Below are positions 19,126 to 42,855 of a DNA stretch of 64,000 bases, in pieces. Numbering within the stretch: position 1 is the stretch's first letter; every line of letters starts with the position of its first letter. Origin of the DNA: Comamonas testosteroni (GTDB lineage Bacteria > Pseudomonadota > Gammaproteobacteria > Burkholderiales > Burkholderiaceae_C); NCBI RefSeq assembly GCF_003569915.1, contig NZ_KZ984445.1:1-64000 (forward strand), in the 5' to 3' direction. The notes under the pieces are model-generated. The model saw only the letters and a list, made by a program, of their open reading frames with translations, did not search any database and was not told the origin of the DNA. Both the position numbers and the translations under genes were made by a program.

Positions 19126-19198
19126 TCTCGTTATTGACAGAGGTGGAATCTCTTTAGACTCAATTGCACGCTAAGTCATTGATTTTTCAAAAGAAAAA

Positions 19199-19225
19199 GG
19201 GGTTCAATGAATTTCATTGAACCCC
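19199..19225 (-). terminator. Intrinsic terminator, minus strand
   Basis: A perfect 13-bp inverted repeat (GGGGTTCAATGAA, one base, TTCATTGAACCCC). Read on the minus strand it is followed by a T-rich run, so it would end transcription coming from the tmRNA-like sequence just upstream. Confidence 0.7.
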
Positions 19226-19242
19226 TTTGGATGGGTGGATGG

Positions 19243-19637: not shown

Positions 19638-20285
19638 TCAGTCGGCCTGCCGCCGAAGCCAACCCGGTATGTCGTCGGCCCCAGCACGCTTGGCCTTGTC
19701 GTCCGGCCTTGCATCGTCCGGGATATCTCTCCAAACTGTCAGGAAATGGGCACCCGGCGATCCGTTTTGGACCAGGACGTAACCGGACCGCAGCTCCTTC
19801 CGCCCCCAGGTTGTCTGCCACCGTGCTGAGAACGACCACAATTCGCCACCATCAGCTTGACCCTTGAGGAACTCCTTCCACGCTGCGTTGAGGTGACCGA
19901 AAGGCAGTTCAGGCGCCGCCCTGAGAGGATCCGTGACGACCTCGCGCTTCTCAACTTCCTGCACCGTCAGTCGCTCCAGCAGGTGTTGCCGCTCGACGGC
20001 GAACTCCCGTTCCTCCTCAACCTCGGCATCATCCTTTTTCTTGAACATCTCCTTGGCCTTCATGTAAACCGCAACAGGCCATACTGCGACAACCAGAATG
20101 GCAGCCAGGATCGGCGCGACGACGTTGTTGAGGATTCGGTAGGAAAGCTTCTTGCGATCCGGGTTGACCGCCTCGAGCAGCTCCCGAAGGGACTCGGATT
20201 CCTTCTCCTTCGTCAGCCGATGGGCACCGTACACAACGGCGAGGACCGCGATGCCGACGCCCAGGTACCAATAGAGGTAGATCAC
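19638..20285 (-). CDS. Unknown protein with two transmembrane segments, last gene of the CoCoNuT-type operon
   Basis: This 215-residue protein has a membrane segment at about residues 3-20 and a second at 53-72 (VVAPILAAILVVAVWPVAVY). A charged Glu/Lys stretch at 75-110 and a soluble C-terminal domain of about 100 residues with several Trp follow. I do not recognise the family. Its start overlaps the preceding gene's stop as ATGA, so it is coupled to that gene and probably belongs to the ten-gene operon. A membrane protein ending a defence operon may be an effector or an anchor, but that is inference only. Confidence 0.7.
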   Translation of the reverse strand: MIYLYWYLGVGIAVLAVVYGAHRLTKEKESESLRELLEAVNPDRKKLSYRILNNVVAPILAAILVVAVWPVAVYMKAKEMFKKKDDAEVEEEREFAVERQHLLERLTVQEVEKREVVTDPLRAAPELPFGHLNAAWKEFLKGQADGGELWSFSARWQTTWGRKELRSGYVLVQNGSPGAHFLTVWRDIPDDARPDDKAKRAGADDIPGWLRRQAD

Positions 20286-20782
20286 GCCGTGCCCCCGTCG
20301 TCTTTGCTGGCTCGCGGGAAAACCGTCATGGCGCCAACTTCATAGCCCTCAGGGGCGCCATCAGACTCGGCGACCCCGTTGTGCTGCACGCGGGTGGCAA
20401 CGACGACCCCTCGCTCGACCTCCAAGAACAGGTCGCGCTCGAAGGTGCTGCCGTAGCCCATGTGTACGTACTCGAGCTGCTTGCCCTGCGGAAGACGGAT
20501 CGTGCCGGAGTACCAATGGGCGAACACCCTGTCCGGAAACCCGGGGAAGATGGTTGCCAGCGACGCATCGGTCCCGTCTTCGAGCGTTCCGTTCAGACCG
20601 ATCAGGTACAGGCGGTCGTCAGTGATCTCCCAACTGCCGACGTAGCCGCGCCATAGGGCCGTGCAGTTCGACTCGAAGCGCGGGTTGGTGCCCCCCATCG
20701 CGAAGTAGTCGCTCAGGGGGTTCGTGCACATGGCCACGTCCTCGCCCTGGTAGCGCAGCTTTTCAGCAATCTGTGCAGTCAT
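20282..20782 (-). CDS. Conserved hypothetical protein, CoCoNuT-type operon
   Basis: This 166-residue soluble protein opens with MTAQIAEKLRYQGED, contains TALWRGYVGSWEITDDRLYL and has a late EYVHMGYGSTFERD segment. The pattern recalls a widespread beta-rich family of unknown function that I have seen only as hypothetical proteins. AGAGAGG stands before the start. It lies 60 bases after the McrC-like gene and overlaps the next gene, so the pair may be an extra module of this operon or of the island. No catalytic residues can be named. Confidence 0.7.
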   Translation of the reverse strand: MTAQIAEKLRYQGEDVAMCTNPLSDYFAMGGTNPRFESNCTALWRGYVGSWEITDDRLYLIGLNGTLEDGTDASLATIFPGFPDRVFAHWYSGTIRLPQGKQLEYVHMGYGSTFERDLFLEVERGVVVATRVQHNGVAESDGAPEGYEVGAMTVFPRASKDDGGTA

Positions 20783-20842
20783 ATTGCCTCTCTAGAATCT
20801 GATTTTTTTCAAAATAAGGCCCGGGAGTACGGAATACCGTTC

Positions 20843-22663
20843 TCACAAAGAGACTTCAAAATCCAACCACTCGCGGCCAGACCAATTAAACCCATCGGCC
20901 AACGGTAAATTCGTCGCCCCCCTTGGTCGCAATGCAAAGACTCTCTTGTCACTCAAGGTCTTGAGTGACCAAGTGGTCTCGCAGGTTCGACATCGGCAAT
21001 AAAACTCCCGGTTCGGGCTAGCACTGAATTGAGCATCATGACTGCAGAGACGCGACAGAGTCGTCAATTGATCTACAGCAGTCAACACCTGATTTTTGAT
21101 TTGTTCGCTTGCAGACTCCTGCAGTTTTAACTTGATCTGGGACGCCTGCCTGGAGTCCAGTGGCGCGACAAGTCGAACGTGCGTCGAAGATATGCTCTCA
21201 AAATTATTGGGCCATCCGTCAGCCATCTGCTTTACAAGTGTTGGCAAGGGGCCAAGTTTTTTTCCGTAGCCTTCGATCAACCCTGAAATCATCCACTCAT
21301 CAATTAATCTCCCCATCTTTTCGACAACGTAAAGATCTAAAGGAGATATAGCCAAACGCTGCCGATAAGAAATACTGTCTGAGCAGCCTGGCCAGCAAAC
21401 GACATGACTTGAATTTAGGTTTTCACCTTCTTCGACATCTTTTCCAAACCAGGCGATAGGAATCAACCGAAGAGCTTCACCGTGCGAGTTGAGAATTAGC
21501 CAATCGTGTCCATCCTGTCTCACTGAAAACGTAATTCCAGCCCAGCCGAACTCCAAGCGATCACCCTGTCCACCTTGCAGTCCATATCTTTCCAGGGCTC
21601 GTCGAAGAACCAGGCCAACGTAATCTCTGTAGGCAAGGTGCAACTGCTGATGCTTCGCCAGTCGCTCTTCTGGCCTCATTTGCCGCTCCTCTCGTTCGTC
21701 TTTCAAACTTTCCCAAAGAGGAGGCAAATGCCTATAGTGAGGATCATGATTCAGAATGTTGGTGCGATGAATCTGCGCGGGTACTACAGACGCTGCGGGG
21801 ACCAGTGGGTAAAGACCACGTTGCTTCAATCCTCTAATTGAACGCAACTGAGCCTCAATCTCCGATAGAGCACGCTTTCCGGCTTCCAATTGCATCCCTG
21901 TCTTGTCATCAAGATATGACTCGCCCCAAAGGCGACAAATATCCTGGCGAAGTCGAAAATGCGTCTGCTCAGAGTCTTGAAACTTCAAAGCTCGTTCCAG
22001 CCGTGAATTGACACTCCGGATGCGAGCCAGTCGCTTTGTAAGGTGTAGATCAAGCCTATCCAGCAAGCGCTTGTAGAGCCTGTTCTCATAGATGGCGTAG
22101 TCGTCCTCGCTGAACCGCGCTAAAACTTTGCGCGGTTGAATTCCGCTGAGCGTGCGTTGCTGCCAGCAATCTGAGTGTGAAGCTAGGTGACTTAATGCCG
22201 AGGTTGCGAGGCGTCGAGCTCGCGCCACAGGTGCAACCAAATCGTCATACCGAAGGTCTCTGCGGGGCCGGCCAGATATTGAGTGCAAATGACGATCTCT
22301 GAGTACCGCCTTTAAGTTTCGTTCGAGCTCTTCAAGTGCACATTGCGCAGCCATCTCAGCCGGTAGCATCGGAGAGACATTGGCATCATGTACGTAACCG
22401 AGTTTGCCAGCGATCGAAAGGATCGCCTCGGCGGAAAGATCGGAGTCCGCTTGATCTTCGTCGGACTGTTCGCTGGAGAGCACTTGGCGTTCAGCGTCGT
22501 GAATCCGGATGACGCCAGAGCCATCATCTGCCAGCAGCTCGCCCGGTTGCAGTTGGCTGTGCCCGTTGACTACGAGTGGCTCAAGCAAGCAGTACCGCCC
22601 CGGCAGGTACACGTCGGGTAGGTCATGGAGCTTCCCGCCGGTAAGGCGGTCCAGAAATATCAT
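20843..22663 (-). CDS. DUF2357/McrC-like subunit of a CoCoNuT-type system
   Basis: This 606-residue protein is encoded right after the coiled-coil McrB-like ATPase, overlapping it as ATGA, the position of McrC in McrBC systems. The central ARFSEDDYAIYENRLYKRLLDRL segment near residue 190 is the DUF2357/McrC hallmark (ENRxxKxLL). A helical region follows. I do not see a clear D...ExK nuclease site, so the McrC nuclease may be lost or strongly diverged. Near residue 555 FYCRCRTCETTWSLK gives one CxC/CxxC group that may bind zinc. In CoCoNuT systems as described computationally by Bell, Koonin and colleagues, the McrC homologue partners the ATPase and may or may not cut DNA. Confidence 0.72.
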   Translation of the reverse strand: MIFLDRLTGGKLHDLPDVYLPGRYCLLEPLVVNGHSQLQPGELLADDGSGVIRIHDAERQVLSSEQSDEDQADSDLSAEAILSIAGKLGYVHDANVSPMLPAEMAAQCALEELERNLKAVLRDRHLHSISGRPRRDLRYDDLVAPVARARRLATSALSHLASHSDCWQQRTLSGIQPRKVLARFSEDDYAIYENRLYKRLLDRLDLHLTKRLARIRSVNSRLERALKFQDSEQTHFRLRQDICRLWGESYLDDKTGMQLEAGKRALSEIEAQLRSIRGLKQRGLYPLVPAASVVPAQIHRTNILNHDPHYRHLPPLWESLKDEREERQMRPEERLAKHQQLHLAYRDYVGLVLRRALERYGLQGGQGDRLEFGWAGITFSVRQDGHDWLILNSHGEALRLIPIAWFGKDVEEGENLNSSHVVCWPGCSDSISYRQRLAISPLDLYVVEKMGRLIDEWMISGLIEGYGKKLGPLPTLVKQMADGWPNNFESISSTHVRLVAPLDSRQASQIKLKLQESASEQIKNQVLTAVDQLTTLSRLCSHDAQFSASPNREFYCRCRTCETTWSLKTLSDKRVFALRPRGATNLPLADGFNWSGREWLDFEVSL

Positions 22664-25038
22664 GCGCCACGCTCCCTATCCTTGCGGCGACGGTCTTCAG
22701 CCAACAGGGCCATGGAACGGCGAGGCTCTGCTTTCCACCCTTTCCAAACAGTTGAGAGCGCTTGTTCGACAGCTGTCAAATCATCGACCTTCGCATCGTA
22801 GCGACCAGTGACCTTGCCGCGCCGAAATACTCTGGTAGCGAGCAAATGATCCAGAGCGTCCTCTTTGCGACCGCCTGCGGCCATGTAAACGGGGACAAAT
22901 CGCATAGCCTGACGCTCGAGTCGATTGCCCCAACCCAGGTCAAAGCGATCCTGCAAGATGCTTGTGAGCGGGCCCGTGGTCAACTCCGCCAACAACTCTG
23001 AAACCTCATCAGCGTTTTGTGTCACAGCAGCATCGAAACGCTCCATCAATGATCCATAGCTAAAGCTGGCCTTCGGCTTCGGCTCCACCTTGAATCCAGC
23101 TTCGTGGCGGGGAAGCGTCATGACATGAGCACGGTCGTAGGTTTTGTCAGCGAACTCGTTCGTCGTTTCATCGTGGTTAGCAGTGCCTACAAACCAAACG
23201 TTGTGGGGAACCCGAATTCTTCGACCCTCGACCAGCAGCGCTGGTGCGTTTGGCAACTGGCTCTCCGACAAACTGATGAGTCGATCTCTTGGGTCATTCT
23301 TTTCGAGCGCCGAGAGGAATTCAGCAAAATACTGCTCCGGGCGCGACAGGTTCATCTCGTCCAGCAAGATGATGTTGCACCGGTCCTTGTAGGCGGCTGT
23401 TTGCGCACGGTAGAGACCTTGTAGGCAGTCGCGCTCATAGAAGCGCTTCTCGAATGCGTTGTAGTGCCCTAGTAGATCATCACGGTCTCGCCAGCCAGCT
23501 TGGACGGCAATGTCAGTGCAGTGCCCTCCAACAGCCTTTGCGAACGCCTTCGCCAGGCTCGTTTTACCCGTGCCGCTGATTCCCTGAAAGATGTGAAGCT
23601 GGCTCATGGCCAACCCGGCAATAAGTAACTGAATATCTTCGAGGCTGAAATGCAATGTCGCTCCATCCTCCGCTTGAGCGATTCTGTGTTGCAGTTCAAC
23701 CGAGAATTTCTTCAGTTCCGGAACATCCTGCGCCGACAGGCTCAACTCCTTGGCCTTACGATCCTTGATCCAATCTGCATTAGTCGCCGAATCCATCCAT
23801 GCCATTTGAGGGAACGGCTTCTCGGATTGCTGTGACTGGGTTAGGTCATCTACCGTTTTGCCCAAGTCATTGAGTCTTGCACTCAAGATCTGATTGTTCT
23901 TTTCTAAGGCGCGCTTCTCTTTTTCAAGGTTCTCTTTGTCGCTCACACCGAGACGCAGGCGATGAAGCTGCGCCTTTGCATCGGCCAATTCGATGTGAAC
24001 CTCATCAAGCTGAACCTTCTGCTCATCCCGCAGTTTTCGCAGCGCCTCGTTCTCAAATTGCAACTGATCATCCTGACTGTTTGCAATTTGGTTTTCCAAT
24101 TGAGTGACTCGACGTTTCTGAGCAGCCAACTCGTCAAGTATCTCGCGGGCAGACCTCCCTGCCAATGCCTCTGAGAACTCCCGGTATTGCTCTAGTTTCT
24201 GTTCAGTCAATGTCCAATCGCGGTAAACCTTTTCAAGGCGTGCCTCTGCGCGTAGTCGAGCATCGGTCAATCTGGCAATTTCCTGACTGGCCTCGCGAAG
24301 TGAATCTTCGCGGATCTGTACCCGTTCACGCTCAAGCTCTTTCCACTCTGCATCTAGTTGCCGTTGCTGCTGCTGTAGAGATCTCTGCTTGTTTGCAATC
24401 TCCGCTTCACGTTCCATCACTTCGGATGCGCGCGCGGACTCATCGTCACGTGCTTTCTGCTCCGCTTGAAGGATGCCGAGTTGAATCTCAGTCTTCCTAG
24501 ACTCGAGCTCCACGATTTCTTTCTTGAGATCACTGAGTGCGGCCACGTTTTGGGCGGCAAAGCCGGAACGCGCATCCAGTTCTCGCTTCTCAAGTTCACG
24601 CTCCTTATCGGCCAAACTTGATTCGGACTTTTTTATCTCAACTTGCCTTTGCTTCAACTCTTCGTCGAGTTTGTTGATCTCTTCGGTTCGCTTCTTGTTC
24701 TCATCACTTCGCCGGGAGAATGCCTCCTCCTTGCGAACCAGGTCCTCTGTGCGCTTCTGCGCGTCTTCATGTAGATCACGAACTCTCTTTGCGACTTCGG
24801 AGATGTCCACCAATAGCTTCTCGAGCTCGATCTTCTTCTCCGGCTCGGCTTTGTCCAACGCAGTCACCTGATCTTTATCCAAGTCGGGCAGCGTCAAGGT
24901 GGCAGCATCGCTTTGTTCAAGCGGTGGCATGGAATTAATCGTCGCCTTTGCCTTCTGTAATTTAGACGCGAAATCGCTTTGTGCCGCATCCTTGTTATGC
25001 GCTACTGAGGGTTTTTTCCCTTTATTGTGTTGTGCCAT
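22660..25038 (-). CDS. Coiled-coil McrB-like AAA+ ATPase (CoCoNuT CnuB-like)
   Basis: This 792-residue motor has a very long coiled coil, about residues 60-420, made of heptads rich in Glu, Lys, Arg, Leu and Gln. An AAA+ domain follows with Walker A GISGTGKTS near 484, Walker B NIILLDEMNLSR near 559 and the sensor segment GTANHDETT. It is related to McrB but lacks the MNxxDR GTP signature. ATG at 25038 is chosen because it lies one base after the stop of the previous gene; an in-frame upstream start would add an implausible segment overlapping that gene. A motor with a long coil beside a McrC homologue and a HEPN protein is the defining layout of coiled-coil nuclease tandems, type IV restriction systems predicted to attack RNA. 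Confidence 0.85.
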   Translation of the reverse strand: MAQHNKGKKPSVAHNKDAAQSDFASKLQKAKATINSMPPLEQSDAATLTLPDLDKDQVTALDKAEPEKKIELEKLLVDISEVAKRVRDLHEDAQKRTEDLVRKEEAFSRRSDENKKRTEEINKLDEELKQRQVEIKKSESSLADKERELEKRELDARSGFAAQNVAALSDLKKEIVELESRKTEIQLGILQAEQKARDDESARASEVMEREAEIANKQRSLQQQQRQLDAEWKELERERVQIREDSLREASQEIARLTDARLRAEARLEKVYRDWTLTEQKLEQYREFSEALAGRSAREILDELAAQKRRVTQLENQIANSQDDQLQFENEALRKLRDEQKVQLDEVHIELADAKAQLHRLRLGVSDKENLEKEKRALEKNNQILSARLNDLGKTVDDLTQSQQSEKPFPQMAWMDSATNADWIKDRKAKELSLSAQDVPELKKFSVELQHRIAQAEDGATLHFSLEDIQLLIAGLAMSQLHIFQGISGTGKTSLAKAFAKAVGGHCTDIAVQAGWRDRDDLLGHYNAFEKRFYERDCLQGLYRAQTAAYKDRCNIILLDEMNLSRPEQYFAEFLSALEKNDPRDRLISLSESQLPNAPALLVEGRRIRVPHNVWFVGTANHDETTNEFADKTYDRAHVMTLPRHEAGFKVEPKPKASFSYGSLMERFDAAVTQNADEVSELLAELTTGPLTSILQDRFDLGWGNRLERQAMRFVPVYMAAGGRKEDALDHLLATRVFRRGKVTGRYDAKVDDLTAVEQALSTVWKGWKAEPRRSMALLAEDRRRKDRERGA

Positions 25039-25039
25039 T

Positions 25040-26503
25040 TCAATACCAGCCCTTAAAAATTTGAACCCATTCGATGACAAAGTCAGCGTATTCCATAGCT
25101 TCTTCTCTATCGATTTTTTCGCCACCTGAATGCCCGGCTTTTTTGTTGCGAGCATCGGCCATATCAAGCAGACGAGCCAGTTGAAGCTCATCGGCGGATA
25201 GCTTGAGGAAGGGGTGTGATGCTTGATCCACTGTCCCTAGAAGTCCTGCAAACAACAACGCCTTGAGCGAACTGGTACCGCGCTTTACCGCTGTGCGCAC
25301 CTGATCTAGGCGCTGCTGAGACAAACGCTTGATTACGTCATCGGTGAGGCAAGGAAGGTTGAAGAACTGGAGGTAATATTGCGCTTCCCCATCTTTCCAA
25401 TCCCTCTGGTCTTTCCAGTGCGGCAATCTACGAATGTCCGATGGGTATGCTTTCAACAGCCACTGCAGTACGCTTTCTGCCAGGTTGTGAGTCTCAATGA
25501 GAAGGCTAGTCACATCCTCCTGCCAAGACCTCTCCTGACTAGCCAGCACGGACCTTCGTCTCAGAACGCTGGCGAGGTATCCCTCAACAATCGGTACCTT
25601 CCGCGACCAGTTGTAGTCAGCAAGCAGTGTCAAGTCGATCTGATTCTCCAGGGATCGGAGCCACTCCTCTGCCGACAAATCGTTCGATCTCGTCTCGCCT
25701 ACCGCGTCAGCGATGTATCTTGCAAGTGCATCGTTTCGCGGCAAGACTTCCTGCAGGGGTTTGCGCAACCACGACGCAGCCTGGTGCAACCCGAATGGAT
25801 CTGCAACCAACCAGGGTTGTGACCCAGCCTCGTCGGGAAAAATCCATGTCCACAACCACATCGGCTGCGCCGAATCTTCGACAAAGCTCAGGCTCTCAAT
25901 CCGGACACGTGCCGAAAGCTCGTCATCACGCTGTTTGGCATGGTCGTGATCCGTCCGATAGCGCTGAAACGCATCAAAGATGGCCGCTGTGTCCAGTACG
26001 CCCTTTCGGAAGTGATTGAGGCGGAACGGGCGATCCTCCTTTCCGGAATCGAGGTCTCGCAGGAACACGGGGAAACCACGTTCATCGACTCGCTTCGCTT
26101 CGATCTCTGGAAGTTCTTCAGTGAATCGCGGCAGCCAATTCCCCGAAATCGAGTCCTGATATGCGTACCCCATGCGGACTTCCTCGCTGGCATCCTGAGC
26201 CTCTTCGAGGACACGCTCACCTTGAGAGGTGACTGATCCCGAGGTGTTCATCCAGCCGTTCGGGATCAGTTGAGTTGCAATGATGAAGGCCACCAGCTCT
26301 CGGTCCAGCCTCAGCAACTCAGCCATTTCCGAACTGTCTTGGCATCTGGCCCTTGCCAGTCCAAGGATCGCCTGCTGGAACAGGTTCAACTTGAGGACAC
26401 GATTTGTTGGATAAAGGACCTTCCAAACGCGGACAGGCCACAGAAGCGGCCGCCCACCCGGGGGGCGACGGACATCGAAGCGAAGATAGCGGTTAGCGGC
26501 CAT
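25040..26503 (-). CDS. HEPN-domain protein, predicted RNase effector
   Basis: This 487-residue protein has a winged-helix-like N-terminal part (LNLFQQAILGLARARCQDSS, then GSVTSQGERVL). A long helical middle follows. The C-terminal domain reads DARNKKAGH, then a helix DREEAMEYADFVIEWVQIF. The RN-x4-H at about residues 451-457 matches the HEPN RNase signature (R, polar residue, x3-4, H) in its usual place before the last helix. HEPN proteins cut tRNA, mRNA or rRNA in toxins and defence systems. ATG at 26503 overlaps the helicase stop by 11 bases and has GGAG upstream. It sits between the helicase and McrB-like genes, where a CoCoNuT effector subunit is expected. Confidence 0.68.
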   Translation of the reverse strand: MAANRYLRFDVRRPPGGRPLLWPVRVWKVLYPTNRVLKLNLFQQAILGLARARCQDSSEMAELLRLDRELVAFIIATQLIPNGWMNTSGSVTSQGERVLEEAQDASEEVRMGYAYQDSISGNWLPRFTEELPEIEAKRVDERGFPVFLRDLDSGKEDRPFRLNHFRKGVLDTAAIFDAFQRYRTDHDHAKQRDDELSARVRIESLSFVEDSAQPMWLWTWIFPDEAGSQPWLVADPFGLHQAASWLRKPLQEVLPRNDALARYIADAVGETRSNDLSAEEWLRSLENQIDLTLLADYNWSRKVPIVEGYLASVLRRRSVLASQERSWQEDVTSLLIETHNLAESVLQWLLKAYPSDIRRLPHWKDQRDWKDGEAQYYLQFFNLPCLTDDVIKRLSQQRLDQVRTAVKRGTSSLKALLFAGLLGTVDQASHPFLKLSADELQLARLLDMADARNKKAGHSGGEKIDREEAMEYADFVIEWVQIFKGWY

Positions 26504-29500
26504 GCGCCATCTCCTCTCTGCAAAGCTTGAGGAATGCAGCCAGAGCCGGGACCCCTTCCTCGGACTCGGGCCCTTCGGCCATGTGTTTGGCACCGACGGC
26601 GACGAGGAGCTTCCTCTGGCGACTCATCGCCACGTTCATGCGATTTGCCAACCGCAAGTGTCCATACTTGCTGTTTAGTAATCGTTCGCGCTCTTCCCCT
26701 TCCTTCTGATCGGGAATCACCACGTCGTTAGCACGCACTACGGACAGGAAGACGAGGTCAAATTCTTTGCCTTGAAACGCGTCAACCGTGCCGACGCGCA
26801 GTCGCTCATCACCTGATTCAGTCTGCCGGTAGGAGCGTGCGATTCGGATTTCCCCATCCTCTTCCTCTGCCAAGCCCTCGTCAGCCAGTGCATCAAGTAT
26901 CAGGTCACACTGGGCGCGGTAGAAACTGATGACCCCAATGCTCAGCGAAGGTCCACAAGAATCTGCAATCCGCTTAACCTCTTTTGCAATAGAAATTGCC
27001 TCCGCCCGTCTTTCATAACCGGGTTTTAGGAATCTTTCTTTCCCGTCCTGCAGAGGCACATCCAACCAAGCCGCACATTTGCCTTGGTAGCCAGGAATCG
27101 TGTGAGCGAAATCCTCCGCAGGTCGCCCCGAGTGCAAGACGTCCAATCCCTCAGATTCATAGAACTGTTTGCTGATGAAGTCACCCAGTGTCGGATGCAT
27201 TCTGTACTGCGTATCGAGCATCACGACGCGCTTGATGTTGTCGACTTTCTCTTGCTCCCTAAGCTGCTTCACCAGCCGCTCAAAAAGACTCTGCTCATAC
27301 GCCTTCGCTTGAGCCTCAGTCAGGCTTTGTCTCGAAATGAGTTCGTCTTCCAACTCTCGCTGAACAAGGTGAGGTAGTTGTCGATGGTCGCCGACCAGGA
27401 TGATGCGACGCCGCGCCATCGCCATAGGAACGAAGAGGTCTAGAGGGTTTGCCCTGGCGGCTTCGTCGATGACAACCGTGTCGAACTCAATTCCTTCTGA
27501 TGCATCTAGGTCGCTCAACTCTTTCAAACTACTCATCGCCTTACCAGCTGACTGCTGGCAGGTCGCACCGACAATGCTGGCGTACTCGCGGACCGCTCTC
27601 GCTGCCTCATTGGGGGCTTGGGAAAGTGCCGCGTGGTACGAGGCCACTACCGCAGAGATGCCACGGCGAGATTGACGCAAAGGCGCGTCGATTGCGTGCT
27701 CGATGTCGGCCAAGAGACCAAGTGCTTCGCCGCTCAACGCTTGCTTTAGCTGTGGGGGCCTGTAATCGGGGCTCAACCGATCCAGCATGGACCGCTTAAA
27801 CGCAGCCAATTCAGCAAGATCTGCTTCAGTGGCATCGGCAACCGTTGAAAGTCGCTGGAGCAAGCCCCATTCCGAATCTTGAAGTTTGACGTTGCTGCGC
27901 CGCAGCGTGCGCTCAAGCTGGTGAGCTCTGTCCGGCCCGTCGTCGGCGAACCCGATAGAACTGGTGCGCAGAGCCCTCAGCAAACGCACAAGCCCAGCAG
28001 GCTCATTGGCCTGACGCTGGGTTTCGACTCTCTTCTGCTGGGCAAGAAACTCATCCCATCGGTCCTTAATTTGGGCCGGGAGACGAACGTCTAGATCGAA
28101 CAGCTGACGCAAAAGGACATCAATTTGCTCGAACTGTGTTTGGCGTTCCTGTGCCGACATGCTCGCGAGTCTCAATGCTGTGATACGTCGATCTAGCTCT
28201 TCCAATGGTTGAGTCAGCGGCTCATTCAGCCGAATCGCGTCGAGTCTCACAGAGATTTCTTTCCGTTTGCGTTCACACCAAACACCAACGGGGTCGACAC
28301 CGCCTTCGTCACGGCGCCCTCGACCGCCAATTCGAACGGCAGGCAAGCCAAAGACTTCTGCACGATTCAGGGCGTTATCGACCGCATCGTGCTGGTAACT
28401 GCTAATCAGCACTTGGTGCTGCAGCGAGTTTTCCCCGAGTGTTTCGGCAAGGCGCCGCTGCAAAGCTGCAATGACCTGAGTCTTACCTGTTCCTGGTGGG
28501 CCAACGATAAGTGCGATATCAGGTGTATTGATCGCCTTCTCCAGCGCCTCAATCTGCCGCTTGGTCGGAACACCCTTGAAGCAAGATTTGGCGTAGCTGG
28601 ATAAGCCGTCGAGCTGACGTCGCCGGGCGCTTGGCGGAGCCACCCCTTCCAGCAAGTAGCTCAGTTGCGGCAGTCGCCGTCCTTCATTGATAGATTGCCT
28701 TGCGCGTGCACGACGGGTCTGTACGGCTTCATCACCCGATAGTGAGTAGTAGATGAACCCCTTGGTTGGGGGGCGTTCTGAGCGCCGGTCCTGGCTCGGA
28801 ACCAAGACCACGCCATCCCGCTCGAACCGCAATACACCACGAACCGGCCGACGGCGTGCTCGGTCAGCTCTGCCCGGCACGTCATCAACGTCGGAGTCAA
28901 GATCAAGCTCCCGATCCCCAAGCTCGACTTGCGTCGTGTTCGCCAGCCCCAAAGCTTTCCATCGCCTCCGGAAATCCTTCAGATGATCAGCGTCAACTTT
29001 TAGAAACCAGGCCCACAGTTCACCTTCGACGAGTTCCGCACTCTTGAAGCGAAGAGAACCCAGTTCCCTCGCGCAATCTCGAGCCTGCTCCCATTCGAGC
29101 GCACCATACTCTTGCCATAAACGTAGGTAGCTGCCGTTGTCGCGCAGCGCGGCATCCAAGAGTGCGCGTTGCTCTGTACTCTGGAGACGCACGGCGACAC
29201 TGGCATCTTCGAAAGAGATCTTGCCAACAGCCATGGCTACACGTGCTGTAGCCCCCTTGAGACGAGTGACGCTCATCAGTTTGAGCACGCCAGCATCTCG
29301 TTTGACGTTGCCGCGCCAGCCTGCACCAAACAGAACGAAGCTCTCATCGGAAGCGTTGTCGAAGCGGCCAAGAAAAACACGATCCATTTCTGAGTTCGGT
29401 GCTTTTTCAGCTGAGATGAATTGCTCATTCAACCAACCAACTGCAGTGGGTACGTCTGGAGCAGAAATCTCACCCCTGCTGGCCAATTGCTCCGCAATGG

Positions 29501-29807
29501 CCTCATCAACAGAAATCGCCATATCCAGCTGGATCTGCTCGACCAAATCCAGCGATTGAAGGTGGAGAACCTCGCCATGCCGTTGTCTTAACACCCACAA
29601 CGTCAGGCCTCGTTGTACCTGAAGCGCAGTTCGATCTTGGCGTCCTTCTACTTTGCCGACGCAAACGGAGTTGCCCTGTCGGAGAAGATAGTCATTACCG
29701 TGTGCCTGTACTGACACGGCCTCACCGATTTGCCAATCGGCTCCCAGGTCGTCACATGTGAACTTGGCAAGTTCACCCGACAGAAGAGGAAAGTCGCAGA
29801 GTTTCAT
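26493..29807 (-). CDS. UPF1/Dna2-like superfamily 1 helicase (CoCoNuT CnuH-like)
   Basis: This 1104-residue protein has about 400 N-terminal residues that look beta-rich and may include OB-fold modules. Helicase domain 1 has Walker A VGPPGTGKTQ near 435 and motif II VVIDEAARANP near 779. Between them lies a long helical insertion. Motifs III-VI follow (GDHRQLPHL, DTQYRMHP, VGTVDAFQGKEFD, NVAMSRQR). The DEAA box and the QGKE segment are typical of UPF1-like enzymes, which move on RNA or single-stranded DNA. ATG at 29807 follows GGTGAGG at five bases and lies seven bases after the kinase stop. It probably remodels the RNA or ribonucleoprotein target for the HEPN and McrC partners. Confidence 0.85.
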   Translation of the reverse strand: MKLCDFPLLSGELAKFTCDDLGADWQIGEAVSVQAHGNDYLLRQGNSVCVGKVEGRQDRTALQVQRGLTLWVLRQRHGEVLHLQSLDLVEQIQLDMAISVDEAIAEQLASRGEISAPDVPTAVGWLNEQFISAEKAPNSEMDRVFLGRFDNASDESFVLFGAGWRGNVKRDAGVLKLMSVTRLKGATARVAMAVGKISFEDASVAVRLQSTEQRALLDAALRDNGSYLRLWQEYGALEWEQARDCARELGSLRFKSAELVEGELWAWFLKVDADHLKDFRRRWKALGLANTTQVELGDRELDLDSDVDDVPGRADRARRRPVRGVLRFERDGVVLVPSQDRRSERPPTKGFIYYSLSGDEAVQTRRARARQSINEGRRLPQLSYLLEGVAPPSARRRQLDGLSSYAKSCFKGVPTKRQIEALEKAINTPDIALIVGPPGTGKTQVIAALQRRLAETLGENSLQHQVLISSYQHDAVDNALNRAEVFGLPAVRIGGRGRRDEGGVDPVGVWCERKRKEISVRLDAIRLNEPLTQPLEELDRRITALRLASMSAQERQTQFEQIDVLLRQLFDLDVRLPAQIKDRWDEFLAQQKRVETQRQANEPAGLVRLLRALRTSSIGFADDGPDRAHQLERTLRRSNVKLQDSEWGLLQRLSTVADATEADLAELAAFKRSMLDRLSPDYRPPQLKQALSGEALGLLADIEHAIDAPLRQSRRGISAVVASYHAALSQAPNEAARAVREYASIVGATCQQSAGKAMSSLKELSDLDASEGIEFDTVVIDEAARANPLDLFVPMAMARRRIILVGDHRQLPHLVQRELEDELISRQSLTEAQAKAYEQSLFERLVKQLREQEKVDNIKRVVMLDTQYRMHPTLGDFISKQFYESEGLDVLHSGRPAEDFAHTIPGYQGKCAAWLDVPLQDGKERFLKPGYERRAEAISIAKEVKRIADSCGPSLSIGVISFYRAQCDLILDALADEGLAEEEDGEIRIARSYRQTESGDERLRVGTVDAFQGKEFDLVFLSVVRANDVVIPDQKEGEERERLLNSKYGHLRLANRMNVAMSRQRKLLVAVGAKHMAEGPESEEGVPALAAFLKLCREEMAHGR

Positions 29808-29814
29808 CGTTGCC

Positions 29815-31284
29815 TCACCAGTTGAAACGCCAAACGACATGCTCTTCTTCTACTGAGCCTAGGTGGAGCCAGAAAGACACTCCTGAACGACTGTCTGATT
29901 TGAGCCGCTGCCGACGCACAACCGTGACGACTTTGTCGTCAGATGCTCTTTGCAAGGAAACTTGCGTACCGGCTGATGGCTCTATCCACAAGCCATCCTT
30001 AGCAAGTTCGACAGTGCATAGCGGACGGGCATCCGCGTACAGAGACGTTCCCAAGGGCAAAGTCTTTAACTCGGCAGGGCTCATACTCAAAACCATCGCC
30101 TTGCCTGTGCGAGTCCAGCACTCTTTTCGAATCAACGACTCTGGAACATCTTCCGGCAAGCCCTCCCGGAGCAGATCCGGAGGCATATAGCGATATTCCT
30201 GCAAGAGGATCGTGCGATTCGTGTCCTGGGCGTGATCGCAAAATGGACAGATGTGCTTCGAGGTGTAGAAAAACGTGCTGCCGCAAGACTCGCATTGATC
30301 GCAATGGCCTGTGGCAGCCTCGAATGCATCTGCCCACTCATTCAGACTTGGCCGCTCACCCGGATTGTTCAGCCCGGCATTGAAGCATCGTTCAAACAGC
30401 GCACGCAGTGGCGCATTGAGCGTGATTTCGCGGGGAAGACCTATCGACAAGGCGTTGCTGCGATCAACTGGGTGATCTACCCAAGGGAGTTCGCCTCGGA
30501 GGGCCGCCTCTTCACGCTCGGGTTCTCCCTCAAGAACAACGTCCCCCTTGAGGGGGTGAACCAGCGCGAGGACGCGATACGCCATAACCGCATAACTCCA
30601 GCTGTCGGTCAGGGTGTTGATGCCTGAATCCCCCCTCAGAATCTCTGGAGCCCCGTAATCGGGGGTGAACACACCTTGCTGACCATCTAGCGACTGACTC
30701 GAAATGTTGTCTGCGTCGATTAACCAGACTTCAGCATGCTCCAGTGATTCCGATACAAAGACATTGGCAGGAGACAGATCACCATAAGCAAGTCCCCTCC
30801 CGTGCAGATCAGCGAGCACGCGAGCGATTCGGCTAAGGATCCGAAACCTCCTGCGCAGGCCACCCGCAGCCAAGTACGCAGCCCTTTCCGCCAAGTTCAT
30901 CAACCCCGCGCGCTCTTCTCCTTCGGCTTCGGAAGCCGCCCGCATGCCATCTTCTACAACTTGCATGAGGCTTGCCATCGAAACAAGTCCATCCATTAAT
31001 TCCATGACGTATCCCGGCTGTGGCTGCGTAATGAGGGCCAGCGGATGCGCGATTGGCAGCCCCTCAAGTGGCTGACGCATAAGTGAGCGGATTTTGTTCG
31101 TCCAACTGGCTCGCTTTTCTTCAGTGGTTGCGCGAGAGACTTTGACGAGTACATTGGGGTAGTTGGTCGTGCAAACGATCCCCTGACCGCCTTCGCCGAT
31201 ACGCCCTGTCAGTTCATAGGACTGACCGTGTTGGTCTAGCACCGTCCTGTTTTTCTTTGGTGCCTCTGGTGTTGCTGTGCTCAT
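29815..31284 (-). CDS. Protein kinase with zinc ribbon (TerY-P triad kinase)
   Basis: This 489-residue protein has a kinase domain at about 20-300: glycine loop GEGGQGIV near 28, catalytic loop LAYGDLSPANVFV near 168 with HRD replaced by YGD, and LIDADN near 188 in place of DFG. An activation-segment GAPEIL is present. A four-cysteine zinc ribbon (CDQCESCG, CPFCDHA) follows at 325-350, then a beta-rich tail that could be an OB-like or FHA-like module. The start overlaps the phosphatase stop as ATGA. Kinase, PP2C phosphatase and TerY-type VWA protein form the TerY-P phosphorylation triad, known from comparative genomics near tellurite-resistance and defence genes; here it probably switches the downstream machinery. 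Confidence 0.85.
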   Translation of the reverse strand: MSTATPEAPKKNRTVLDQHGQSYELTGRIGEGGQGIVCTTNYPNVLVKVSRATTEEKRASWTNKIRSLMRQPLEGLPIAHPLALITQPQPGYVMELMDGLVSMASLMQVVEDGMRAASEAEGEERAGLMNLAERAAYLAAGGLRRRFRILSRIARVLADLHGRGLAYGDLSPANVFVSESLEHAEVWLIDADNISSQSLDGQQGVFTPDYGAPEILRGDSGINTLTDSWSYAVMAYRVLALVHPLKGDVVLEGEPEREEAALRGELPWVDHPVDRSNALSIGLPREITLNAPLRALFERCFNAGLNNPGERPSLNEWADAFEAATGHCDQCESCGSTFFYTSKHICPFCDHAQDTNRTILLQEYRYMPPDLLREGLPEDVPESLIRKECWTRTGKAMVLSMSPAELKTLPLGTSLYADARPLCTVELAKDGLWIEPSAGTQVSLQRASDDKVVTVVRRQRLKSDSRSGVSFWLHLGSVEEEHVVWRFNW

Positions 31285-31985
31285 TCAGACGTCCTAAAAA
31301 TGGCCACGAGTGTTTTGTCGTCGCTGTGTAAGGGTGTGGCCCAGTCATTCAGTTCAGACTGCAACCAGCGTCTGCCTCTGCGCCGATTTCGAGCGCTTAA
31401 GTCTTGGTAAAGCGCATCAAAGAAGTCGGCAAGATGTGCAGGTTCGAGGTCATCGGCCAAGCCATCTGTCATCAAGACAACACCATCACCCGGCTCGGTG
31501 AATCGGCCTTTCGTATAGCTCCATTTGTCCTGCAGGTGTGTGGACTCAAGTGCCCAAGTCTGATTGCCATAGGCTGTGCGCTCTGGCGTGACGCGACGGA
31601 ACTCACCAGCGCATTTCACCAGCAGAAGACCATCACCCAATTGGGCTGCATGGACCTCGCCTTGATCTGTCACGTGGCCGAACAGCAGCGTGGTCGCGGC
31701 GTCCCGAGGAGTTGTCGGCTCAACCGCTTCCAGCCATTGCTGATGAATCAACGGCAGCGTTGCCGGCAGATCGAAACTGATCGATGTGGCGCGCAAGATC
31801 CGCCGGGTAACTTGGCAGGCACTACGTGCCCCTAGATCACTACGTGCTCGCGATCCCAAACCGTCTGCTACAGCCGCAATCCAGCCACCACGGCAACCCG
31901 CCAGAACCATCGCGTCCTGATTTGGCTCGCCCAGATCCAGATGTCGGGGGCCGATGACGCTCGCGCCGCAGGCAATAAACCTCAT
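31281..31985 (-). CDS. PP2C-family serine/threonine phosphatase (TerY-P triad)
   Basis: This 234-residue protein has the metal-binding motifs of PP2C phosphatases: NQDAMVL near residue 22, AVADGLGSRARSD near 38, LGDGLLL in the middle, LMTDGLADD near 175 and DDKTLVAI at the end. It has no membrane or sensor domain, so it should act in the cytoplasm, removing phosphate placed by the kinase encoded next. Both junctions are four-base overlaps, so VWA, phosphatase and kinase are made in a fixed ratio. Confidence 0.9.
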   Translation of the reverse strand: MRFIACGASVIGPRHLDLGEPNQDAMVLAGCRGGWIAAVADGLGSRARSDLGARSACQVTRRILRATSISFDLPATLPLIHQQWLEAVEPTTPRDAATTLLFGHVTDQGEVHAAQLGDGLLLVKCAGEFRRVTPERTAYGNQTWALESTHLQDKWSYTKGRFTEPGDGVVLMTDGLADDLEPAHLADFFDALYQDLSARNRRRGRRWLQSELNDWATPLHSDDKTLVAIFRTSE

Positions 31986-32800
31986 TGGAAGTCGAGGTCC
32001 AGCGCGTCATCATCCGGGGGCGGGACAACGAATGCGGTAGAGACGTCTGGATTTTGGCTTGCCGTGCGAGTGGTCACACTCATGGTCACTGCACGGAAGA
32101 AACGGTGGATGTCCCGGGCGTTGTGGGCCTTGAAAATAGGAGCCTCTGCGTCGTTCGCAAAATCCTTCAGCATTGCTTCATCGGCATCCGGCCCAATCGC
32201 CATTGCAAGACGGGTCGCTTTTTGTGCCCGTTCGGAGTCGCGAAGAGCCTTGAAAGGCCTCTCCCAGTCGTCGGTCGGTTGTCCATCAGACAACAGAATC
32301 AAAACGGGGCGATAGGCTCGGGAGGGGATGCGATCCTTGTCCTCTAGCAACTGGCGCGCGAGATCAAATGCCGCACCCATCGGCGTGACACCGTCAGCCT
32401 TAAATTCCGAGAATCCTGCGACGCCATGCGCTGCAACCAATGGCAAGTGCATCTGCGCCTTGCCACCAAAGGTGATCAGGCCCACCTGGATCTCGGCGCG
32501 CAAACGACTTTCCTTGGCGAAAGTCGACACCATGTCCTTCATCGCAGCGTTGAGCGCTTCGATCTTGCCGTTCTCCCCCATGCTGCCACTTGTGTCAGCC
32601 AAGACGATCACGGGGAGAGGCCGGGGCGTGGCGACAGCGAATTTTTTGAGACTGCTCATCTTCTTTGTCCTTTGATCAGGTTGATTTTTGGCATTCGGGC
32701 TTGAGGGCTTGGGTGGTGAAACCGGCACCTTGATGGAACGCATCGCGAGATCGCCGACGTATCGACTCACGATGTCTTCTTGGTATTTGGCAAACCCCAT
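31982..32800 (-). CDS. TerY-like von Willebrand factor A protein
   Basis: This 272-residue protein has a VWA domain with a full MIDAS site: DTSGS at about 64-68, the Thr in GVTPMG, and LSDGQPTDDW. It is the first gene of the sigma-54-controlled run. The start at 32800 has GGAGG at a good distance and gives a 47-residue Pro/Lys-rich N-terminal tail; ATG at 32659, right before the VWA fold, is an alternative with AAAGGA upstream. In TerY-P triads the VWA protein is thought to bind a partner through metal and to be regulated by kinase and phosphatase. The acidic C-terminus (DDDALDLDF) could be a docking or phosphorylation tail. Confidence 0.85.
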   Translation of the reverse strand: MGFAKYQEDIVSRYVGDLAMRSIKVPVSPPKPSSPNAKNQPDQRTKKMSSLKKFAVATPRPLPVIVLADTSGSMGENGKIEALNAAMKDMVSTFAKESRLRAEIQVGLITFGGKAQMHLPLVAAHGVAGFSEFKADGVTPMGAAFDLARQLLEDKDRIPSRAYRPVLILLSDGQPTDDWERPFKALRDSERAQKATRLAMAIGPDADEAMLKDFANDAEAPIFKAHNARDIHRFFRAVTMSVTTRTASQNPDVSTAFVVPPPDDDALDLDFQ

Positions 32801-32833
32801 GATCCAGCCTCCAATTCATAAAAGTTCTTATGC

Positions 32834-34351
32834 TTATGCACCATCCGTGCCAGCTTTTTTGGACTGGTACTTGAGCAACCAATTCGTCAAAGTTTGGTAA
32901 CTGCCAAGACCCAACAGCTTCGCTGCCTCAGTCTTGTTGCCACGACTCTGCTCCATGGCCCTATCCAAGTAGTGCCGGGCTACATCTGCCATCAGGTCAG
33001 GCAGTGAAAACCCCTCGCCAATTGCAGCCCCGAGAATGGCGTCGTCGGTGCCGGTGGTTGTGAGCGAGAGAACCTCATCGACATCCTCGGCGGCTATCTC
33101 CTCTCCTGGTGCCCAGATGGACGCCCTCAAAAGCGCGTTGTGCAGCTCCCTCACATTGCCCGGCCAGGTGTGGCGAAGAAGAAGATTTCTTGCGCCAACA
33201 GATAATTTCTTATTTTTAAAGCCCGGCTGGGAAGTTGCTTCGCGATTGATCTGCGCCAGCAAAGCGTCGATCAATAGATTGAGGTCCCCTTCGCGAGCGC
33301 GCAGGGGAGGCAACGCCAAGATGCCAACCGCGATTCGATGAAACACATCCTCTCTGAATCGCCCCGCCCGAACTTCTTCCGGCAGAACCCGGTTGGTAGC
33401 GGCGACGATGCGCACATCGATTTTTCGGGACTTACTGGCCCCCAAGCGGGTCACTTCATGCTCCTGGAGTACGCGCAGCAGTCGAACCTGTGACTGCAGC
33501 GGCAGTTCACCGATTTCGTCCAAAAAAAGCGTCCCGCCATCAGCTGCCTCAAAGTAGCCAGCACGGGTTGCATGGGCACCGGTAAACGCACCCTTTTCAT
33601 GACCGAAAAGCTCGGAGTCGATCAGTTCGAGCGGGATGGCCCCACAGTTGACTGCAACAAAGGGAGCGCCTTTTCGCTTGCTCGAAGCGTGGATCGCACG
33701 TGCAAAGAGTTCCTTGCCGGTCCCGGACTCCCCTTGGATCAATACGGGCAGATCCCGTTGCGCCAATCGCTGCGCCATCGCGACTACACGCTTCATCGCA
33801 TTGCAGCGGTGAATGATGCTGGCGAACTCCGGCACTGCCGGGGGCAATCCTTGGACCAGGTGTGCGAGAGCTTCGTCAGCTTGCTTGCTCGCAACTGGAA
33901 GGAACTCAGCGGCCAGGTCGAATGGAACAACGACAGGACGCACGCCGTGTTCACGAGAGGATTCGATGAGGTTGGCCCCGTACTTGGCTTTCGCCAACAG
34001 CACCCAGACAGCAGCCATGGCAGGGGTACCAGGGCTCACGTGAAAAGTGACTGGCAGCTCAGGAGAAGAAGAAAGCGTCGCGGACACCGCTCCGTTGGCT
34101 GCGACGTATATGTCTTCGAAATTGGTGGGGCTGCGCAGTTTTGCGTACCGCACCTCTGTAGCCCCGGTGAATTTGCCGCTCAGCCACGCCACGAAGTTCT
34201 GCGTTTTCTGCTGACCGTGATCTGACAGGAGCACTAGACGGTCATACACCCCGGTCTCCAGCGCCATCAAGATGGGACCGAAGTCTGTGCCCGACGCATC
34301 TTCCGAGGCGCGAAGGTCTGAGTTACCAAGCCAGGCAAAAAGTGTGGGCAT
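32834..34351 (-). CDS. rtcR: RtcR-like sigma-54 activator with N-terminal CARF domain
   Basis: This 505-residue regulator has an N-terminal Rossmann-like CARF domain at about 1-180 ([24 protein letters not shown]), the domain that binds cyclic oligonucleotides or RNA with cyclic ends. The sigma-54 AAA+ domain has Walker A GESGTGKE near 206, GAFTGA near 252 for contacting sigma-54, Walker [10 protein letters not shown], and an arginine finger region. The C-terminus is a Fis-type helix-turn-helix ([20 protein letters not shown]). In E. coli RtcR controls the rtcBA RNA repair genes, but no rtcA or rtcB gene is present here. Instead a sigma-54 promoter follows directly before a TerY-P/CoCoNuT operon, so this copy probably links RNA damage or second messengers to defence. 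Confidence 0.88.
32837..32852 (-). promoter_or_regulatory. Sigma-54 (-24/-12) promoter for the VWA-to-membrane-protein operon
   Basis: Read on the minus strand: TGGCACG, four bases, GTGCA, against the consensus TGGCACG-N4-TTGCA. Only one base differs, and the GG and GC doublets are correctly spaced. It overlaps the last codons of the RtcR-like gene and would start transcription about 25 bases before the VWA start, just upstream of GGAGG. An RtcR-like activator needs exactly this promoter type. Confidence 0.8.
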
Positions 34352-34364
34352 CAGGCATAAGAAA

Positions 34365-34411
34365 TTATGTGACTACATAAATTTCATTCTATCGTGGGTC
34401 ATATGCATATG
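34365..34411 (-). promoter_or_regulatory. Inverted repeats upstream of the RtcR-like gene
   Basis: A 6-bp inverted repeat (TTATGT, four bases, ACATAA at 34365-34380) lies 14 bp before the start, and a 12-bp perfect palindrome (CATATGCATATG) lies at 34400-34411. AT-rich sequence around them suits a promoter, with TAGAAT as a possible -10. They may be operators for a repressor or for self-control. Confidence 0.4.
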
Positions 34412-34514
34412 GAAAGCGTCGTAGGCCCTAGCTGATGACAAGCGAAATCCTGGACGGCTAGGAGTGCAAACCGATCAACTTCACACTACCCCGGCATTCA
34501 CTCGCCATACCTCA

Positions 34515-34559
34515 TTGCCCCAGCTTCCGTCGCAGTGTATTATGTCATCAATTTGATGA
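34515..34559 (+). promoter_or_regulatory. Sigma-70 promoter and operator of the WYL/type I restriction operon
   Basis: TTGCCC (34515-34520), a 17-bp spacer and TATTAT (34538-34543) make a reasonable sigma-70 promoter. A perfect 7-bp inverted repeat, TCATCAA-T-TTGATGA (34545-34559), covers the expected start of transcription. This is the layout of an autorepressed operon and suits the WYL protein encoded 80 bp downstream. A 16-codon open frame at 34576-34626 lies in the leader, ending at the ribosome binding site; it may be chance. Confidence 0.6.
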
Positions 34560-34639
34560 TGTAAACTGCCTAGCAATGAGCAATCGAACAACCAATTTCG
34601 GTCTTACCGTCATCTTCCGTGGGTGAGGAGCACCTGACC

Positions 34640-42843: not shown

Positions 42844-42855
42844 AGGGGGCGGAGG

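What the first reader, a model, noticed from the sequence alone, without database searches (positions are those of the whole stretch)
19638..34351. A full CoCoNuT-type RNA-targeting restriction operon with TerY-P and RtcR control
Ten minus-strand genes with overlaps or short gaps encode: CARF/sigma-54 activator, VWA, PP2C, zinc-ribbon kinase, UPF1-like helicase, HEPN protein, coiled-coil McrB-like ATPase, McrC-like protein and two unknowns. Coiled-coil nuclease tandems are known mainly from comparative genomics (Bell, Makarova, Wolf, Koonin and colleagues). Seen directly: the motifs and gene order. Inferred: that the ten act as one sensing-to-killing system.
Basis: partly seen in the sequence, partly recalled or inferred. 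Interest (0 to 1): 0.9.

Follow-up and report, generated by a model that had tools for sequence, protein, structure and literature searches.

The report
CoCoNuT defence operon with sigma-54 switch
This is a known type of predicted bacterial virus-defence operon, and a conserved sigma-54 promoter-like site sits exactly between its RNA-damage sensor gene and its weapon genes, which turns the guessed on-switch into something that can be tested directly.

Summary
The ten minus-strand genes are real but are not one ten-gene unit. Eight (rtcR-like, VWA, PP2C, kinase, cnuH, cnuE, cnuB, cnuC) form a Type II CoCoNuT with TerY-P and an RtcR-like CARF/sigma-54 activator, an arrangement already published (PMC11090510). 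The same order recurs in 16 of 88 related loci. The two 3' genes do not belong: they have homologues in 1 of those 88 loci and beside unrelated genes elsewhere.
I found no report of the next point (seven paper searches, passages of three papers). A sigma-54 -24/-12 site overlaps the end of rtcR (32837-32852), 36 bp before the VWA start codon; it is the window's only one-mismatch match. The pattern lies upstream of vwa in 21 of 32 loci with a CARF activator in the locus and 6 of 10 with one 9-28 kb away, against 0 of 25 where none was found; one unresolved locus also has it. It stays with the CoCoNuT where rtcR lies at the other end. In 5 of 9 superoperons the CoCoNuT has its own site besides the one after rtcR, which would weaken the published read-through timing model. 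No function was tested; signal and enhancer are unknown.

The parts
32834..34351 (-). rtcR-like activator: N-terminal CARF, sigma-54 AAA+ with GAFTGA, Fis-type HTH
   Evidence: PADLOC RtcR_PspF2 3e-198; Sigma54_activat 2.4e-70, HTH_8 1e-06; GAFTGA at residue 254
32837..32852 (-). sigma-54 -24/-12 promoter-like site TGGCACGGATGGTGCA, in the last codons of rtcR just before its stop; predicted start of transcription near 32826
   Evidence: Only <=1-mismatch match in the window, both strands; top PWM score of the window; conserved in relatives
32808..32812 (-). Shine-Dalgarno-like GGAGG before the VWA start
   Evidence: Read from sequence
31982..32800 (-). TerY-like VWA protein
   Evidence: VWA 6.1e-14; PADLOC TerY only 0.0055
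31281..31985 (-). PP2C phosphatase
   Evidence: PP2C_2 3.4e-40
29815..31284 (-). Ser/Thr kinase with C-terminal zinc ribbon
   Evidence: Pkinase 1.6e-11, zf-ChsH2 0.0021
26493..29807 (-). cnuH, UPF1-like SF1 helicase
   Evidence: AAA_12, AAA_11; IGHMBP2 family 1.8e-34, below cut-off; the Met at 29807 is invariant in A1
25040..26500 (-). cnuE, winged HTH plus one HEPN motif (R-x5-H)
22660..25038 (-). cnuB, helical charged N-terminus plus McrB-like GTPase with NxD motif (GTANHDETT)
   Evidence: AAA_5; NxD in 46 of 46 rows; composition
20843..22663 (-). cnuC, McrC homologue: DUF2357 plus C-terminal region with conserved Cys; no conserved nuclease triad
   Evidence: C-terminal half differs from the closest relative
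20282..20782 (-). u1, conserved hypothetical, probably a passenger rather than part of the system
19638..20285 (-). u2, hypothetical with hydrophobic stretches by eye, found with u1

Best explanation
The locus is a Type II CoCoNuT with TerY-P, held under an RtcR-like CARF activator. The activator is made as a separate upstream gene and waits with its AAA+ domain held back by CARF. When CARF binds a signal of RNA damage (by analogy with RtcR, RNA ends with 2',3'-cyclic phosphate), it opens sigma-54 RNA polymerase at the site 32837-32852 and switches on the seven-gene block vwa-pp2c-stk-cnuH-cnuE-cnuB-cnuC. The products are then thought to find viral or stalled-translation RNA and cut it with the HEPN of CnuE, with phosphorylation by TerY-P as a further control. 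Shown here: gene content, co-inheritance, motifs, the position and conservation of the sigma-54 site, and its tie to CARF activators. Inferred: that the site is active, that this activator uses it, the signal, the RNA target and the killing.
For: Eight-gene order in 16 of 88 loci, including a Rhodoferax antarcticus plasmid at 68-84% identity. NxD in 46 of 46 CnuB rows. The sigma-54 site is the only one-mismatch match in the window; 1.11 are expected by chance over the whole window, both strands. By a PWM with recalled weights, 24 of 25 loci first classed as RtcR-positive have a best site within 600 bp upstream of vwa at same-locus p <= 0.054, and 17 of 25 rank first in their locus; median 16.0 against 7.5 for the 43 others, Mann-Whitney p = 1.5e-7. 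By the weight-free pattern TGGCAY-N7-GCW, after all 68 usable loci were sorted by protein evidence: 21 of 32 with an activator in the locus (0.32 expected), 6 of 10 with one 9-28 kb away (0.23), 0 of 25 with no full-length match listed (0.10); Fisher p = 6e-8 for the first against the third, 6e-7 if the unresolved L024, which has a site, is put in the third. Of 42 rtcR 3' ends listed, 41 were scored (one too short): 29 have a site within -30 to +150 at p <= 0.02 and 22 hold the top site of their sequence. In four loci with rtcR 3' of the CoCoNuT (L030, L055, L090, L040) the site is upstream of vwa. Four of four rtcR genes not looked at before, found by an RtcR search, have the pattern 1-84 nt after the stop. 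The genome has one RpoN match and one full-length RtcR-like match, this one.
Against: 11 of 32 in-locus cases miss the strict pattern; most of those still have a fair PWM site, but L033 (p = 0.55), L018 (p = 0.70) and L074 (p = 0.62, rtcR adjacent) have none by either measure in the 600 bp before vwa. In L018, L074 and the same-genus G224 locus the activator runs almost straight into vwa-like genes with no site between; L018 has a looser match about 440 bp before rtcR instead. L024 has a site but no full-length RtcR match listed in its draft genome (its contig ends 1 kb upstream). The 0-of-25 group is mostly other phyla: six are proteobacterial genomes, and against those alone the Fisher p is 0.004. 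'None found' means no full-length match in the listed rows at E <= 1e-60, so divergent activators beyond the locus could be missed, and for L011 and L012 only the plasmid was searched. Loci were re-sorted after the first scores were seen, though on protein evidence. No shared enhancer motif was found. Nothing was tested at the bench.
Confidence: 0.75

Rival explanations
1. One constitutive or upstream promoter transcribes rtcR and the CoCoNuT together, and the -24/-12 match is chance or coding constraint at the rtcR 3' end.
For: In the window the site lies inside rtcR codons; genes are closely packed; one weak sigma-70-like match (9 of 12) lies upstream of rtcR at 34386-34415, but in the scanned stretch such matches are no more frequent than in shuffles (5 found, 6.5 expected). 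L018, L074 and G224 have rtcR next to vwa with no site between.
Against: Of the 29 rtcR ends with a site at p <= 0.02, 24 have it after the stop (+2 to +139 nt) and five before it (window, L009, L013, L014, L016); the site is upstream of vwa in loci where rtcR is elsewhere.
Confidence: 0.13
2. All ten genes, with u1 and u2, form one functional unit.
For: u1 and u2 follow cnuC closely on the same strand; the pair also follows cnuC in the distant locus L043, at 84% and 57% identity.
Against: Not homologous to the genes in that place in Rhodoferax; no match in L013 and L014; u1 relatives sit 3' of a Zorya system, of an AAA gene pair, of an hsdR-like gene, beside a proteasome-like gene, and beside genes that look metabolic.
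Confidence: 0.08
3. A Mokosh-like defence system rather than a CoCoNuT.
For: PADLOC MkoA hits the helicase (1.4e-93, profile 336-1082) and the kinase (1.5e-09, profile 8-282), so kinase plus helicase together cover MkoA; MkoB hits CnuE weakly (3.4e-06).
Against: An NxD McrB-like GTPase and a DUF2357 McrC homologue are present and co-inherited, and kinase and helicase are separate genes.
Confidence: 0.03

Closest known systems
Type II CoCoNuT with TerY-P and RtcR (Bell et al. 2024, eLife, PMC11090510; abstract, sections 7, 9, 11 and passages read)
   Same: Gene content and order, NxD CnuB, UPF1-like CnuH, single-HEPN CnuE, reduced CnuC, RtcR at the 5' end
   Different: Here a sigma-54 site is located between rtcR and vwa and found to be conserved; the main text holds the word 'promoter' once, for RtcR-independent internal promoters thought likely. 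There is no room for a BrnT-like gene between rtcR and vwa in the window (33 nt).
RtcR of the rtcBA RNA-repair operon (PMC9650030, passages read)
   Same: CARF-AAA+-HTH design acting on a sigma-54 promoter
   Different: Best match is the RtcR_PspF2 group, not RtcR (3e-198 against 2.8e-59); the presumed target is a defence operon downstream on the same strand, not rtcBA
RtcR homologues linked to restriction-modification (Makarova et al. 2014, PMC4012209, passages read)
   Different: The word 'promoter' does not occur in that main text; here candidate sites are found
Mokosh
   Same: MkoA profile covers the kinase and the helicase
   Different: Kinase and helicase are separate genes here and an McrBC-like pair is present (Mokosh composition recalled)

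Membership tests
Type II CoCoNuT | McrB-like GTPase with NxD instead of NxxD | tested here: met
   GTANHDETT in the window; NxD in 46 of 46 aligned rows
Type II CoCoNuT | Long coiled coil fused to CnuB | tested here: inconclusive
   In favour: residues 110-470 are 51% charged or Gln with 3 Pro and 5 Gly; weak SMC matches over 64-455 (E 0.004-0.005). Heptad signal only marginal: 27 of 500 shuffles reach it. No coiled-coil program was run.
Type II CoCoNuT | UPF1-like CnuH helicase encoded next to it | tested here: met
Type II CoCoNuT | SmpB-like and RelE-like domains in the CnuH N-terminus | not tested
   No fold prediction was made for CnuH
Type II CoCoNuT | CnuE: winged HTH and one HEPN with the R-x4-6-H motif | tested here: met
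Type II CoCoNuT | CnuC with DUF2357 and no active PD-(D/E)xK | tested here: met
   DUF2357 in 21 of 33 at E <= 0.1; no invariant K and no invariant D after residue 341 in 33 rows, though E448 is invariant
Type II CoCoNuT | Inactive nuclease fold kept in CnuC | tested here: inconclusive
   Model pLDDT 86.7; no PDB match at E <= 0.001
TerY-P triad | VWA, PP2C and kinase with zinc ribbon in a row | tested here: met
   the zinc-ribbon match is weak
RtcR-like CARF activator | CARF plus sigma-54 AAA+ plus HTH | tested here: met
RtcR-like CARF activator | Acts at a sigma-54 promoter | tested here: inconclusive
   Site present and conserved; activity not testable here
Mokosh | MkoA (kinase and helicase in one protein) with MkoB and no McrBC pair (composition recalled; fusion as in the PADLOC profile) | tested here: not met
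   Kinase and helicase separate, McrBC-like pair present

The most novel reading that the evidence does not exclude
RtcR-like CARF activators run a local sigma-54 regulon in defence islands: the module after rtcR and often the CoCoNuT each carry their own sigma-54 promoter, so RNA-damage sensing can turn on DNA restriction and the predicted RNA-cutting module in parallel instead of by one long read-through transcript.
Probability: 0.55. Interest if true: 0.68.

Novelty: new member of a known kind. Interest (0 to 1): 0.52.

Why it matters
CoCoNuTs are known mainly from comparative genomics, and how they are switched on was a hypothesis. A defined promoter candidate, at a defined distance from a defined sensor, lets that hypothesis be tested with one reporter construct, and gives a way to search for the RNA signal. 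The second sites bear on the published idea that DNA restriction comes first and RNA destruction last because of gene order.

Tried and rejected
Ten-gene unit: rejected for u1 and u2. u1 in phages: no match; in viral contigs 17 pattern matches, none confirmed. CnuH relatives in viral contigs: one, at 29%. E. coli: no DNA match for 20843-24842. Enhancer sites for RtcR: the shared words and palindromes printed did not form one motif, left open. Sigma-54 site upstream of rtcR: of 23 loci scored, 21 are below the 95% background value, L046 (12.8) and L038 (9.9) are not. Sequence search of CnuE and CnuC against solved structures: nothing significant. Foldseek for CnuE and CnuC: no match at E <= 0.001; no HEPN entry is named among the 50 rows shown for CnuE, and the Roquin match came only through the VIA second look (that the Roquin N-terminus holds a HEPN domain is recalled). 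Organism of the window: not determined; a near search of 24 kb of the window in plasmids gave one 570-base match. Makarova 2020 on CARF is not held. The sigma-54 weights and consensus are recalled, so a pattern without weights was used as a second test.

Re-sorting of loci: one search used 31/10/17/10 loci. On checking I found L074 (rtcR cut by the locus edge, no site) wrongly among the unchecked, and L024 there although one search had covered it. One search searched nine of the ten unchecked records (all but L024), and one search gives the mended counts 32/10/25 plus L024. Of 88 loci, 21 were dropped before these counts because no complete vwa with upstream DNA was at hand; L005 and L035 are the same contig. 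Confidence in the best explanation was lowered from 0.77 to 0.75 for L074 and L024.
Full report
What is there. Ten minus-strand ORFs fill 19638-34351. From 5' to 3': rtcR-like activator, VWA, PP2C, kinase with zinc ribbon, cnuH, cnuE, cnuB, cnuC, u1, u2. Likely start corrections are cnuH 29807, cnuE 26500, cnuB 25038.

What it is. The first eight genes meet most of the features that Bell et al. give for a Type II CoCoNuT with TerY-P and RtcR (PMC11090510; sections 7, 9 and 11 read): NxD in CnuB (46 of 46 rows), a UPF1-like CnuH, CnuE with a winged HTH and one HEPN motif, CnuC with DUF2357 and no conserved nuclease triad. The coiled coil and the inactive nuclease fold are inconclusive here and the CnuH N-terminal domains were not tested. 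That paper says that many such CoCoNuTs carry only a CARF gene at the 5' end, as here. So the system itself is a new member of a known kind. A PADLOC Mokosh profile covers the kinase and the helicase together, which shows kinship of these parts, not membership.

Co-inheritance. With eight loci from earlier calls (L005-L012), 88 loci were compared with the window proteins. Sixteen have all eight genes in the same order on one strand (L009, L010, L013, L014, L016, L018, L020, L026, L029, L031, L032, L033, L037, L038, L043, L046). The rest are cut by contig ends, lack rtcR, have it elsewhere, or are other CoCoNuT types. Carriage is sporadic: 2 of 100 near relatives of the host have a CnuH match, one being the host itself.

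The two 3' genes. They are not homologous to the two hypothetical genes in the same place in Rhodoferax and no match to them was found in L013 or L014. Homologues of both lie after cnuC in 1 of 88 loci, the distant L043. u1 matched 4 of 369 genomes of the class, the host included, and 4 plasmids, of which I looked at two. Its relatives sit 3' of a Zorya system on a Nitrosospira plasmid, 3' of an AAA gene pair on a Frigidibacter plasmid, 3' of an hsdR-like gene in G015 (L100), next to u2 and a proteasome-like gene in G116 (L099), on the strand opposite u2 in a second G116 place (L098), and near genes that look metabolic in G009 (L101). So the neighbours are not always defence genes, and u1-u2 look like passengers. 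The C-terminal half of the window's CnuC is also an outlier: 52% identical to L013 against 84% for its N-terminal half and 92-99% for the other seven genes, while L013 and L014 keep 83% there. A recombination tract from mid-cnuC past the 3' end is the simplest reading.

The switch. A PWM scan of the regions around rtcR showed a strong sigma-54 -24/-12 site at the end of rtcR, 32837-32852 on the minus strand. It is the only match with at most one mismatch to TGGCACGNNNNTTGCW in the window on both strands (1.11 expected). The predicted start of transcription is near 32826, followed by GGAGG at 32808-32812 and the VWA ATG at 32800. In 25 loci first classed as having a full RtcR-like gene, the window among them, 24 have a best site in the 600 bp before vwa at same-locus p <= 0.054 and 17 have the highest score of the whole locus there. 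The 43 loci then classed as lacking it have a median of 7.5 against 16.0 (p = 1.5e-7).

Controls. Some of those 43 turned out to have a CARF activator: cut by the locus edge (L074, L077, L079), divergent in sequence (L018, L040, L043, L050; a weak CARF match by Pfam in all four), or 9-28 kb away (ten loci, stretches). After this sorting, with a pattern without weights (TGGCAY-N7-GCW) in the 600 bp before vwa, the counts over 68 usable loci are 21 of 32 with an activator in the locus (0.32 expected), 6 of 10 with a distant one (0.23), 0 of 25 with no full-length match listed (0.10), and L024, unresolved, which has a site. Fisher p is 6e-8 for the first against the third and 6e-7 with L024 in the third. 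Against the six proteobacterial genomes of the third group alone (L041, L047, L058, L065, L068, L092) it is 0.004, so part of the contrast may be ancestry. The eleven misses among the 32 are L010, L016, L018, L027, L031, L033, L035, L050, L061, L074 and L079; of these, L018, L033 and L074 also have no PWM site (p 0.55-0.70). In L018, L074 and the same-genus G224 locus the activator is followed almost directly by vwa-like genes. The 41 RtcR-like proteins compared fall into 22 clusters at 60% identity, 15 of which have at least one member with the strict site before vwa.

Position. When rtcR lies at the 3' end of the CoCoNuT (L030, L055, L090, L040) the site is upstream of vwa. At the rtcR stop itself, 29 of 41 scored cases have a site at p <= 0.02. 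Of the 12 that do not, six have rtcR 3' of or on the other strand from the CoCoNuT (L030, L040, L049, L050, L055, L090); the others are L010, L018, L020, L029, L033 and L112 (p = 0.042). As a further test, an RtcR search found six genomes of 369 with a match at E <= 1e-95; of the four whose rtcR had not been looked at before, all four have the pattern 1-84 nt after the stop (+1, +2, +2, +84). Three of them are followed by Type I restriction-modification genes, with no CoCoNuT in the stretch fetched; the fourth (G189) has a CoCoNuT.

Superoperons. In ten loci rtcR is far from vwa: in nine upstream on the same strand with Type I RM-like genes between, in one (L028) convergent. All ten have a site 4-20 nt after rtcR (p <= 0.042). 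Five of the nine (L019, L022, L023, L036, L039), and the convergent one, also have a pattern match 46-334 bp before vwa; L021, L025, L034 and L045 do not. The scores of these second sites are modest to good (9.6-16.0; same-locus p 0.014-0.16), so this point is weaker than the main one. Bell et al. propose that DNA restriction acts first because it is transcribed first (section 11 part 2) and think RtcR-independent internal promoters likely. The second sites suggest that the CoCoNuT can answer RtcR by itself.

Mechanism, shown and inferred. Shown: genes, motifs, co-inheritance, the site and its tie to CARF activators. Inferred: that RtcR uses the site; [quoted passage not shown] that HEPN cuts RNA; that TerY-P gates the system. 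The host has one RpoN match, two RtcB loci and no other full-length RtcR-like match.

Novelty of the promoter. Seven paper searches in the held library (listings seen) and passages of three papers gave no report of a sigma-54 site in CoCoNuT loci. Supplementary files, figures and subscription journals were not seen, so a report there is possible.

Noticed in passing
window 13017-17731 (+): A second McrB-like protein with an NxD-type motif (GTVNIDETT) and, by eye, a helical charged stretch, with an 842-aa partner that has Cys pairs at its C-terminus but no Pfam match: perhaps a Type I-A CoCoNuT, separated from the Type II system by an integrase.
   Followed up: partly
window 34619-46214 (+): Divergent from rtcR: WYL gene, two tandem hsdM genes, hsdS, hsdR, then a canonical McrBC pair with an NxxD-type motif (TMNIADR). 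Three McrBC-family systems thus lie within 33 kb.
   Followed up: partly
window 19638-20782 (-): u1-u2, a small gene pair; u1 recurs 3' of several unrelated defence operons but also beside other genes; could be a mobile accessory.
   Followed up: partly
window 20843-21643 (-): C-terminal half of cnuC differs strongly (52%) from a relative that is 92-99% identical in the other seven genes; may mark the part that sets specificity.
   Followed up: partly
window 19196-19228 (-): 15-pair terminator-like hairpin between u2 and the integrase.
   Followed up: no
window 34545-34559: Perfect palindrome TCATCAAATTGATGA between the WYL gene and rtcR, read; possible operator.
   Followed up: no
   Followed up: partly
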